Assembly: GCA_944385365.1 (NCBI GenBank)
Contig: CALWWW010000001.1
Coordinates: forward strand, 166,941-230,940
Reading direction: 5' to 3'
From: an uncultured Oscillospiraceae bacterium
GTDB lineage: Bacteria; Bacillota; Clostridia; Oscillospirales; Oscillospiraceae
DNA length: 64,000 bases
The position numbers were made by a program, and so were the translations under genes. Under the pieces are notes generated by a model. The model had not been told where the DNA came from, ran no database searches, and was given only the letters and a program-made list of their open reading frames with translations. Numbering within the stretch: the first letter of the stretch is position 1; each line of letters begins with the position of its first letter. Below, piece after piece: positions 4,406 through 6,841 of the stretch.

Positions 4406-5515
4406 ATGGAAAAAGCCAAGGTATATTTTACAGATTTCCGTACCAGCAGCGACGAGAATCTGCTGCAAAAGCTCAAGCGTCTCATGGCCACGGCGGGCAT
4501 GGACACCATCGATTTCACCAACAAGTATGTGGCCATCAAGCTGCACTTCGGTGAGCCGGGCAACCTGGCCTATGTGCGGCCCAACTATGTGCGGGCTGTG
4601 GCGGAGTTTATCAAGGACCTGGGCGGCAAGCCCTTTTTGACGGACTGCAACACCCTGTATGTGGGAGGCCGGAAAAACGCCGTGGACCACATGATGGCGG
4701 CGGAGATGAACGGCTTCAACACCATCACCACCGGATGTCCCGTCATCATCGGCGACGGCCTCAAGGGCACCGACGATGTGGAGGTTCCCATTGTGGGCGG
4801 CCAGTATTTGCAGACGGCCCGCATTGGCCGGGCGGTCATGGACGCCGATATTGTCATCTCCCTGAACCACTTTAAGGGCCATGAGATGACGGGCTTCGGC
4901 GGCGCCATGAAGAACCTGGGCATGGGCTGCGGCAGCCGGGCCGGTAAAATGGCCATGCACAATGCCGGCAAGCCCAACACCACCGACAACTGTGTGGGCT
5001 GCGGCAGCTGCCAGAAAATCTGCGCCCACGACGCCCCCCAGCTTCAGGACAACGGCAAGATGTTCATTGACCACGACAAGTGCGTGGGCTGTGGCCGCTG
5101 CATCGGCGTCTGTCCCGTGGATGCCATTGTCTCGCCCCACGATGAGACCTGCGAGATTCTCGACGGCAAAATTGCGGAGTACACCAAGGCCGTGGTGGAC
5201 GGCCGTCCCCACTTCCACATCACCCTGGTCAACAGCGTGTCCCCCAACTGCGACTGCCACGCAGAGAACGACGCCCCCATTGTGCCGGATGTGGGCATGT
5301 TCACCAGCTTTGACCCGGTGGCCATCGACAAGGCCTGCTGTGACGCAGTGCTGGCCCAGCCGAGACTGCAAAACACCTGGATTGATGACCACGGCGACCC
5401 GTCCATCGAAGACGTGTTCACGGCCAGCCACCCCAACACCAACTGGCGGGGCCAGATTGACCACGGCGTCAAGATTGGCCTGGGAACTGATCAGTATGAG
5501 CTGATCCGCATATAA
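4406..5515 (+). CDS. DUF362 protein with two [4Fe-4S] clusters
   Basis: 369-residue cytoplasmic protein of the DUF362 family, iron-sulfur proteins of unproven function common in anaerobes. The N-terminal 190 residues form the DUF362 domain (SLNHFKGHEMTGFGGAMKN). Two ferredoxin motifs follow, CVGCGSCQKIC from residue 196 and CVGCGRCIGVC from residue 226, each able to ligate a [4Fe-4S] cluster. Electron transfer is likely. The last 31 codons plus stop are repeated 1,275 bp downstream (6696-6790) with only synonymous changes, so the present 3' end appears to have been supplied by an insertion. The product is full length and unchanged in sequence. Confidence 0.93.
   Translation: MEKAKVYFTDFRTSSDENLLQKLKRLMATAGMDTIDFTNKYVAIKLHFGEPGNLAYVRPNYVRAVAEFIKDLGGKPFLTDCNTLYVGGRKNAVDHMMAAEMNGFNTITTGCPVIIGDGLKGTDDVEVPIVGGQYLQTARIGRAVMDADIVISLNHFKGHEMTGFGGAMKNLGMGCGSRAGKMAMHNAGKPNTTDNCVGCGSCQKICAHDAPQLQDNGKMFIDHDKCVGCGRCIGVCPVDAIVSPHDETCEILDGKIAEYTKAVVDGRPHFHITLVNSVSPNCDCHAENDAPIVPDVGMFTSFDPVAIDKACCDAVLAQPRLQNTWIDDHGDPSIEDVFTASHPNTNWRGQIDHGVKIGLGTDQYELIRI
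5421..5515 (+). repeat. Direct repeat, left copy (3' end of DUF362 gene)
   Basis: 95 bp matching 6696-6790 at 91 positions. All four differences fall at third codon positions and are synonymous (cac/cat, gga/ggt, act/acc, ata/atc). This left copy carries GGA, ACT and ATA codons that resemble the AT-richer insert rather than the host genes, suggesting that it came in with the insert. Confidence 0.9.
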
Positions 5516-5595
5516 AATTTTCCTGCAATATTTCTGTAACTGCTGCATATATTGGATCACACAGGGCTTTACGCCTTGATATCAATTGCAAACGC

Positions 5596-5624
5596 TTGAC
5601 AAATATCAGAAAATATGATATATG
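5596..5624 (+). promoter_or_regulatory. Promoter of the AbiF-associated RNA
   Basis: TTGACA (5596-5601), 17-bp spacer, TATATG (5619-5624). Predicted transcription start near 5631, directly before the two-hairpin RNA. The -35 is a perfect consensus, so strong constitutive expression is expected. Confidence 0.72.
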
Positions 5625-5627
5625 TAT

Positions 5628-5705
5628 CTTCAGTGATTGTGTTACAGAAGCCTGCGGGGCCTGTGACCTGAAAAGGGAACTCCTCGGAGTTCCCTTTTCT
5701 TTTTG
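5628..5705 (+). ncRNA. Putative abiF-type structured small RNA with its own terminator
   Basis: Short RNA between a strong promoter and the AbiF-like gene. Two helices are visible. The first pairs GTTACAG (5641-5647) with CTGTGAC (5661-5667) around a 13-nt GC-rich loop. The second is a 13-bp hairpin (5671-5683 with 5686-5698) followed by T-rich sequence, the form of an intrinsic terminator. Structured RNAs preceding AbiF genes are a known association, and such RNAs have been reported to act as antitoxins to the HEPN protein. That this RNA belongs to that class is inferred from position and architecture; covariance was not tested. Confidence 0.62.
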
Positions 5706-5727
5706 TGTGAAGGTTGGTGGCAATACG

Positions 5728-6684
5728 ATGAGCAAACCATTCAAAACCTATGAAGAATTGGTGATCAAATTAAGAGACGATAAAAAACTAAGCGTACCGG
5801 ACGAAGGGCGAGTCATTGAACTGCTGAAAAAACACAGCTATTTTTCCCTTGTTTCAGGTTATAAAACGCTGTTCAAGCAGCCAAACGGCGAATATCGTCC
5901 CGGGACCACCATAGAAGACCTGTTGGCACTATTTGAGTTTGACGATCATTTACGGGATATCTTTTTTCACAACATTCAGATTATTGAAAAGCATATCAAA
6001 TCCTTGCTGTCCCAGGCCTTTGTCGAAAAATATGGGTACGACCAGAACGCGTATCTGAACCCAAATCACTATCATTTGGTTGTCAGCGACCCGGCTGAGA
6101 CATATTCCCGCTGCGGTGAGGGACGGCGGTTGATCCAGAACCTAGGGGACAGAGTGCATCCGCCTTTTGAGCACAAACAATATATCGAGCACCAGTGGAA
6201 GCAACACCGCAACGTTCCCCTATGGGTCACAATCAAGGCTGTAACACTGGGAACAACCTCTATCTTTTACAGCCTGTGTACGCAGGATGTACGGATTGCC
6301 GTCAGCAAAGAGTTTCCCTGCGTCACAGAACAGCAGTTGGTTGGTATTTTGGATTTTCTGACCCGCGTCAGAAATGTATGTGCGCACAACGAGCGGCTTT
6401 ATGATTTTAACTCCGGACCTACCCGTGCAATTCCGGCGTTGCCACTCCACGGACAGCTCCACATCGGTAAGACAAAATCCTATTATCGCAAGGGTCAGCG
6501 GGATCTCTTTGCCGCCGTTGTATGCTTCAAATATCTGCTGTCTCCTGATGAATTTACATCCGCTTTGCAGCAAATCAAGGCAGAAATCAAAGCGCTGTGC
6601 AAAAAAACAAAGCAAATTCCCGAAACAAAAATTCTGAAGTGTATGGGCTTCCCTCCAAACTGGTATGACAGCATTGGGCTGTGA
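5728..6684 (+). CDS. abiF: AbiF/Abi_2-family HEPN abortive-infection protein
   Basis: 318-residue protein of the Abi_2 (AbiD/AbiF) family, phage-defence proteins with a HEPN fold thought to act as RNases. Visible family features are the N-terminal PFKTYEELVIKL, the helix with RDIFFHNIQIIEKHIKS (RX4H at 76-81) and the C-terminal catalytic-type motif RNVCAHNERLYDF (RX4H at 215-220). The ATG at 5728 is preferred because the protein then begins at the usual family N-terminus; an in-frame start at 5596 would run through the promoter and RNA. Base composition is clearly more AT-rich than its neighbours, indicating recent transfer. No integrase or transposase accompanies it. Expected behaviour is a toxin held in check until infection; this is inference from the family. 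Confidence 0.85.
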   Translation: MSKPFKTYEELVIKLRDDKKLSVPDEGRVIELLKKHSYFSLVSGYKTLFKQPNGEYRPGTTIEDLLALFEFDDHLRDIFFHNIQIIEKHIKSLLSQAFVEKYGYDQNAYLNPNHYHLVVSDPAETYSRCGEGRRLIQNLGDRVHPPFEHKQYIEHQWKQHRNVPLWVTIKAVTLGTTSIFYSLCTQDVRIAVSKEFPCVTEQQLVGILDFLTRVRNVCAHNERLYDFNSGPTRAIPALPLHGQLHIGKTKSYYRKGQRDLFAAVVCFKYLLSPDEFTSALQQIKAEIKALCKKTKQIPETKILKCMGFPPNWYDSIGL

Positions 6685-6695
6685 GCAGAAGCCTC

Positions 6696-6790
6696 CGGCC
6701 AGCCATCCCAACACCAACTGGCGGGGCCAGATTGACCACGGCGTCAAGATTGGCCTGGGTACCGATCAGTATGAGCTGATCCGCATCTAA
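6696..6790 (+). pseudogene. Stranded original 3' end of the DUF362 gene (right direct repeat)
   Basis: 95 bp encoding the same last 31 residues and stop as the DUF362 gene but with no start or upstream body. It is followed ten bases later by a strong terminator, so it looks like the native 3' end left behind when the AbiF cassette entered and supplied a replacement end. It has no ribosome site and is not expected to be translated. Confidence 0.88.
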
Positions 6791-6800
6791 TGAAAATGCA

Positions 6801-6841
6801 CAACGCCCCCGACAAGCGATTGTCGGGGGCGTTGATTTTTT
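6801..6841. terminator. Strong terminator between DUF362/AbiF island and galM
   Basis: Perfect 15-bp stem (6801-6815 with 6820-6834, loop GCGA), followed by a T run on the plus strand. It lies just beyond the galM stop and may also end the arabinose operon from the other side. It was probably the original DUF362 terminator. Confidence 0.88.

What the first reader, a model, noticed from the sequence alone, without database searches (positions are those of the whole stretch)
5421..6790. AbiF cassette enters the 3' end of a DUF362 gene and rebuilds it with a synonymous copy
Two 95-bp direct repeats bracket the AbiF unit (period 1,275 bp). They differ at four sites, all synonymous third positions, so both encode the same C-terminus. 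The upstream copy has AT-leaning codons (GGA, ACT, ATA) like the insert; the downstream copy is followed at once by a strong terminator. The simplest reading is that the element carries its own 3' end of the host gene and restores the reading frame on entry, as islands do at tRNA genes, here at a protein gene and without a visible integrase. Recombination between the repeats would remove the cassette cleanly.
Basis: partly seen in the sequence, partly recalled or inferred. Interest (0 to 1): 0.85.

Follow-up and report, generated by a model that had tools for sequence, protein, structure and literature searches.

The report
Integrase-less AbiF island in DUF362 gene
A 1.3-kb piece of foreign DNA carrying a phage-defence gene and its small RNA sits at the end of a chromosomal gene whose last 31 codons it brought along, so the gene stays whole; it looks like a very small example of a known kind of genomic island that has no recombinase of its own.

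Summary
Two 95-bp direct repeats (5421-5515, 6696-6790; 4 mismatches, all synonymous) bracket a low-GC unit (46% against 60%) of one small RNA and one Abi_2 (AbiD/AbiF) gene. The two nearest relatives found (G002, G006) have an empty site: one DUF362 3' end, then at once the terminator and galM. At the four differing sites the left copy is host-like 5' and foreign 3', the right copy the reverse, as expected of attL and attR after insertion of a circle carrying its own copy of the gene end. No recombinase lies in the unit and none was found for this site. Comparable AbiF units occur elsewhere: after tRNA-Thr, between tRNA-Ala copies (with an assembly gap), and between 5' copies of spoVT beside three serine recombinases. 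I read it as a minimal integrase-less island (CIME-like), moved in trans or stranded: a known kind, moderate interest. Side finding: a sporulation-type promoter before the AbiF RNA in 36 of 91 loci.

The parts
4406..5515 (+). DUF362 / 4Fe-4S gene; its last 31 codons and stop are the left repeat
5421..5515 (+). left repeat (attL-like): host-type C at 5431, foreign-type GGA, ACT, ATA in the 3' part
5516..5595 (+). left arm of the element; holds a weak sporulation-type promoter match CAATA (5526-5530), 15 nt, CATATATTG (5546-5554), below the pattern used for the count
5596..5624 (+). sigmaA-like promoter TTGACA (5596-5601), 17 nt, TATATG (5619-5624)
   Evidence: sequence; similar layout in relatives
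5632..5698 (+). AbiF-associated small RNA: 7-bp covarying stem plus terminator hairpin
   Evidence: model R1 62.4 bits, E 1e-12 (this sequence is one of the 40 in the model); fold z -4.8; covariation
5728..6684 (+). abiF/abiD (Abi_2, HEPN motif RNVCAH at residues 215-220)
6696..6790 (+). right repeat (attR-like): T at 6706, native-type GGT, ACC, ATC; a 31-codon fragment, not a gene
6801..6834 (+). native DUF362 terminator, now downstream of abiF
   Evidence: same place in the empty sites

Best explanation
A minimal integrative island (repeat period 1,275 bp) without a recombinase, holding an AbiF toxin-like defence gene and its RNA. A circle carrying a near-identical copy of the last 95 bp of DUF362 recombined once with the host copy inside the 53-bp block where both are identical (6707-6759). 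This gave a chimeric, intact gene end on the left and a stranded native end with the terminator on the right. Shown: insertion, empty sites, mosaic of the four sites, absence of a recombinase in the unit. Inferred: that a site-specific recombinase acting in trans (or since lost) did it, and that the unit descends from the attachment-side end of a larger integrase-bearing element.
For: Empty sites in G002 and G006 with the terminator directly after DUF362. At 5485 and 5488 both relatives equal the right copy; at 5512 G006 does (G002 has a third base); at 5431 both equal the left copy. Unit GC outlier. AbiF at E<=1e-30 in 4 of 300 family genomes, this one included; the five other genus members listed have none. 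Same architecture elsewhere: complete tRNA-Thr, RNA, abiF, 35-bp copy of the tRNA end, terminator-like hairpin, no other ORF of 80 aa or more on the abiF strand between (L085); tRNA-Ala (L110); 69-bp spoVT copies beside three serine recombinases (L112/G344). At spoVT three elements with different content (G344 AbiF, G038 one ORF, G413 24 kb) share an element end. Repeats of >=88% and >=35 bp flank 6 of 93 AbiF loci, this one included, and 2 of 516 shifted controls (p 2e-4; without this locus 5 of 92, p 0.001; also without L110 4 of 91, p 0.006). A recombinase ORF lies within about 0.5 kb of abiF in 7 of 96 loci, and AbiF is next to the integrase in the 3 streptococcal records opened.
Against: No recombinase or second element at the DUF362 site in 396 genomes (at most two candidates scored in each), plasmids, phages or, by pattern, viral contigs. 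The mosaic rests on four sites, and 5431 is T in the more distant G004 and G005, so its polarity is uncertain. No excision or circle was seen. The >=88%, >=35 bp cut was chosen after seeing the data; with the first cut it is 7 of 93 against 12 of 516 (p 0.016; without this locus 6 of 92, p 0.04). L110 contains an assembly gap. The 3 streptococcal records were picked from 59 matching ones because AbiF lay near the record start.
Confidence: 0.68

Rival explanations
1. The island arrived by homologous recombination of flanking DUF362 DNA from a relative that already had it, not by a site-specific event in this lineage.
For: The two copies could have come already diverged; the flanks are similar enough between species for recombination (94-95% up, 92-93% down).
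Against: No clearly foreign tract beside the unit: both flanks match both empty relatives at ordinary identity (no finer scan was made). This rival only moves the original insertion to a donor.
Confidence: 0.17
2. A 95-bp duplication made at insertion (template switch or an unusual transposition), followed by four neutral changes.
For: Direct repeats at both ends and an empty site are also what a duplication gives.
Against: 95 bp is far longer than usual target duplications (recalled). Three of the four changes are in the constrained copy and one crossover explains all four; by order alone that has a 1 in 4 chance, so this is weak. The tRNA-end and spoVT-end parallels favour attachment sites.
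Confidence: 0.1
3. Assembly artefact joining an AbiF fragment and DUF362 through the 95-bp repeat.
For: The genome is a draft in 64 contigs; reads are not available here.
Against: The two copies differ and form a mosaic; both flanks match the same contig in each empty relative.
Confidence: 0.05

Closest known systems
CIME (cis-mobilizable element; definition seen in passages of PMC5704250)
   Same: Keeps attL and attR, has lost integration and transfer genes, sits at a gene end, can accrete with an integrase-bearing element
   Different: Only 1.3 kb with one RNA and one gene; no partner element found at the DUF362 site
Dehalococcoides ssrA islands without integration module (passages of PMC3146451: 15 such islands, 31 islands in all)
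   Same: Cargo between a gene and direct repeats of its 3' end, many without a recombinase
   Different: Target here is a protein gene; no series of islands at this site
AbiF-RCd22 of Clostridioides difficile (PMC12373285: abstract, section 7 and passages)
   Same: Abi_2 protein with an upstream structured RNA and terminator; there shown to be a type III-like RNA antitoxin; the paper also reports mobilome genes enriched beside abiF
   Different: There in a prophage lysis module with two RNA motifs; one RNA here, and Rfam RF03085 does not match it
AbiF beside the integrase of streptococcal phages and satellites (Javan324, Javan64, Javan537)
   Same: AbiF as cargo next to the integrase at the end of the record
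   Different: These keep the integrase; proteins about 25-26% identical

Membership tests
CIME | flanked by attL/attR-like repeats at a gene end, gene intact | tested here: met
CIME | no integrase and no transfer genes inside | tested here: met
   the unit holds one RNA and abiF; of 9 Phage_integrase and 9 Resolvase matches in the genome none lies in the window
CIME | an integrase-bearing element uses the same site | tested here: inconclusive
   none found at DUF362; in the spoVT sister case three recombinases adjoin the outer copy
CIME | excision or cis-mobilization | not testable with these tools
   needs reads or cells
AbiD/AbiF (Abi_2) | Abi_2 domain | tested here: met
   PF07751 144.2 bits against cut-off 25.6
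AbiD/AbiF (Abi_2) | HEPN R-x4-H motif | tested here: met
   RNVCAH, invariant in the 5 aligned sequences, window included
abiF RNA (Rfam RF03085) | score above the Rfam cut-off | tested here: not met
   no match in G000, in the window region at E<=5, in L128 at E<=10 or in nine AbiF loci at the cut-off; no control genome matched either, so the model itself was not seen to work
type III toxin-antitoxin | RNA neutralises the protein | not testable with these tools
   reported for AbiFCd (PMC12373285)

The most novel reading that the evidence does not exclude
AbiF-RNA pairs are self-retaining passengers: toxin-antitoxin-like two-part units that travel as orphan attachment-site cassettes of 1-2 kb, each ending in a copy of its target gene (DUF362, tRNA-Thr, tRNA-Ala, spoVT), and are moved only in trans by recombinases of other elements.
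Probability: 0.25. Interest if true: 0.7.

Novelty: new member of a known kind. Interest (0 to 1): 0.45.

Why it matters
It shows how small an integrase-less island can be, with a mosaic that lets the crossover be placed, and suggests that defence units with an RNA partner can spread by borrowing other elements' recombinases. A search for gene-end copies beside defence genes would test how general this is.

Tried and rejected
Complete tandem duplication of DUF362: rejected, the right copy has only 31 codons and the relatives show one gene. Small-RNA duplicates as the insertion target: second RNA copies stand downstream of abiF in L087, L128, L131, L135, but the window has one RNA (the next match there is 13 bits); a short likeness of 6687-6700 to the RNA was left as chance. 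Conserved GCATATAMTA motif as an element end: dropped, because it forms a promoter-like pair with GNATW. Downstream motifs: none clear. L063 (39 bp, 82%) and L153 (repeats within phage-like genes): not used as parallels. L093: repeat only at 1.9 kb, outside the window. Left out of the 104 loci: L043 and L045-L053 (L043, L045, L047-L049 and L051-L053 were looked at: no repeat like those used; L046 and L050 were not examined). The per-site table is off by one base and was not used; one search was. Viral-contig searches with DUF362 gave nothing.

Full report
Observation. The repeats, their coordinates, the four synonymous differences and the terminator are as described. The left copy is the end of a DUF362/4Fe-4S gene (PF04015) and the insert gene is Abi_2 (PF07751; PADLOC AbiD) with a HEPN motif. 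The unit is a GC outlier: 0.455 against 0.603 for the window, below each of 315 sliding windows. abiF ends 11 bases before the right copy, so the next terminator is the native one of DUF362.

Empty sites. Among 60 genomes searched with DUF362, this one included, G002 and G006 of the same genus have 95% identical loci in which DUF362 is followed directly by the terminator and galM. G004 (76%) also has a single copy followed by its own hairpin, and G005 has a gapped copy near a contig end. In 396 genomes 18 match the 95 bp, and only this genome shows two copies; at most two candidates per genome were scored. AbiF is found at E<=1e-30 in 4 of 300 family genomes and at E<=1e-40 in 11 of 394 order genomes, this genome counted in both. 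So the unit was gained in this lineage.

Mosaic. At repeat position 11 both nearest relatives have C like the left copy, while the right copy has T (T also in G004 and G005). At positions 65 and 68 they have T and C like the right copy, the left copy A and T. At position 92 the left copy has A, the right copy and G006 C, G002 T. One crossover in the identical 53 bp explains all four, with the element supplying the 3' end of the working gene. These are four sites only; I do not treat them as proof.

Other AbiF loci. After removing duplicates 96 remain; 93 had enough flank for the narrower test. There repeats were found in 7 of 93 against 12 of 516 shifted controls (p 0.016; 6 of 92, p 0.04, without this locus). 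With >=88% identity and >=35 bp it is 6 of 93 against 2 of 516 (p 2e-4; 5 of 92, p 0.001, without this locus), a cut chosen afterwards. The six are this locus, L085 (tRNA-Thr), L110 (tRNA-Ala, with an assembly gap and at a contig end), L112 (spoVT), L119 (before a GNAT gene) and L153 (phage-like genes). L085 is the closest parallel: complete tRNA, RNA, abiF, copy of the tRNA 3' end, terminator-like hairpin, 1.4 kb, no integrase between.

spoVT. In G344 a 2-kb cassette of abiF and one 144-aa ORF without a Pfam match lies between two 69-bp copies of the spoVT 5' end. Three large serine recombinases (Resolvase, Recombinase) stand next to the outer copy. In relatives of G344 (40 genomes searched) the copy is doubled in three: G400, 1.9 kb apart around a DUF3990 ORF and an HTH ORF; G413, 24 kb apart around exopolysaccharide-like genes named by eye; G038, 1.07 kb apart around one ORF without a Pfam match. 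In G413, as in both G400 copies, the spoVT frame leaves the gene within a few codons of the same point; the G400 gene body is off the contig. G344, G038 and G413 share an element end past that point, while G400 has another, shared by its two copies. The G038 outer copy is the most worn.

Source. By hand-made profiles (8 tyrosine and 8 serine recombinase ORFs as seeds, the three of G344 among them) a recombinase lies within the fetched flanks of 14 of 96 AbiF loci, 7 of them within about 0.5 kb; one of the 14 (L104) overlaps abiF and is doubtful. In three streptococcal records, picked from 59 with a match because AbiF lay near the start, AbiF is the gene next to the integrase. PMC12373285 (passages) already reports mobilome genes enriched beside abiF. 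Loss of the rest of such an element would leave a unit like this one. The window genome has 9 Phage_integrase and 9 Resolvase matches, none in the window; none was linked to this site.

The RNA. A 67-nt RNA precedes abiF in the window (model R1, 62.4 bits; the window sequence is one of the 40 in the model). On these 40 the 7-bp stem is 98.9% paired, with changes on both sides in 5 of 7 pairs, and sliding the partners destroys it; the count of further pair types did not exceed shuffles. Rfam RF03085 does not match. An RNA antitoxin role is shown for C. difficile (PMC12373285), not here.

Verdict. Known kind (CIME; definition in PMC5704250, precedent in PMC3146451), very small, well resolved. 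The listings of literature searches showed no title or abstract start describing AbiF mini-islands; they cover open-licence PMC papers only, and apart from PMC12373285 none of their papers was opened for this.

Noticed in passing
upstream of the abiF RNA; window 5526-5554 (weak, not counted), strong in 36 of 91 relatives: A sporulation-type promoter, GNATW, 13-16 nt, CATANNNT, lies within 150 bp before the sigmaA promoter of the AbiF RNA in 36 of 91 loci (29 of 78 clusters of similar upstream DNA); 1 of 91 on the other strand; mean 0.9, most 4, in 200 Markov shuffles; 39 of 845 control gene upstreams of 250 bp. Found by looking, so post hoc. It resembles mother-cell sigmaE/sigmaK sites (consensus partly recalled; passages of PMC3789822). 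The window genome has SigE. The listing showed no paper on it by title or abstract start.
   Followed up: partly
L128, L087, L131, L135, L124, L122: Second copies of the AbiF RNA in the locus, some just downstream of abiF.
   Followed up: partly
G400:C22, G038:C3, G413:C8, G344:C76: The 5' end of spoVT looks like an attachment hotspot with cargo of 1 to 24 kb and, in three of the four, a shared element end.
   Followed up: partly
G160:C4 (L053): abiF fragment with an internal stop, 65-68% identical to the window protein over about 115 residues.
   Followed up: no
G005:C108 (L038): DUF362 copy with an internal gap near a contig end.
   Followed up: no
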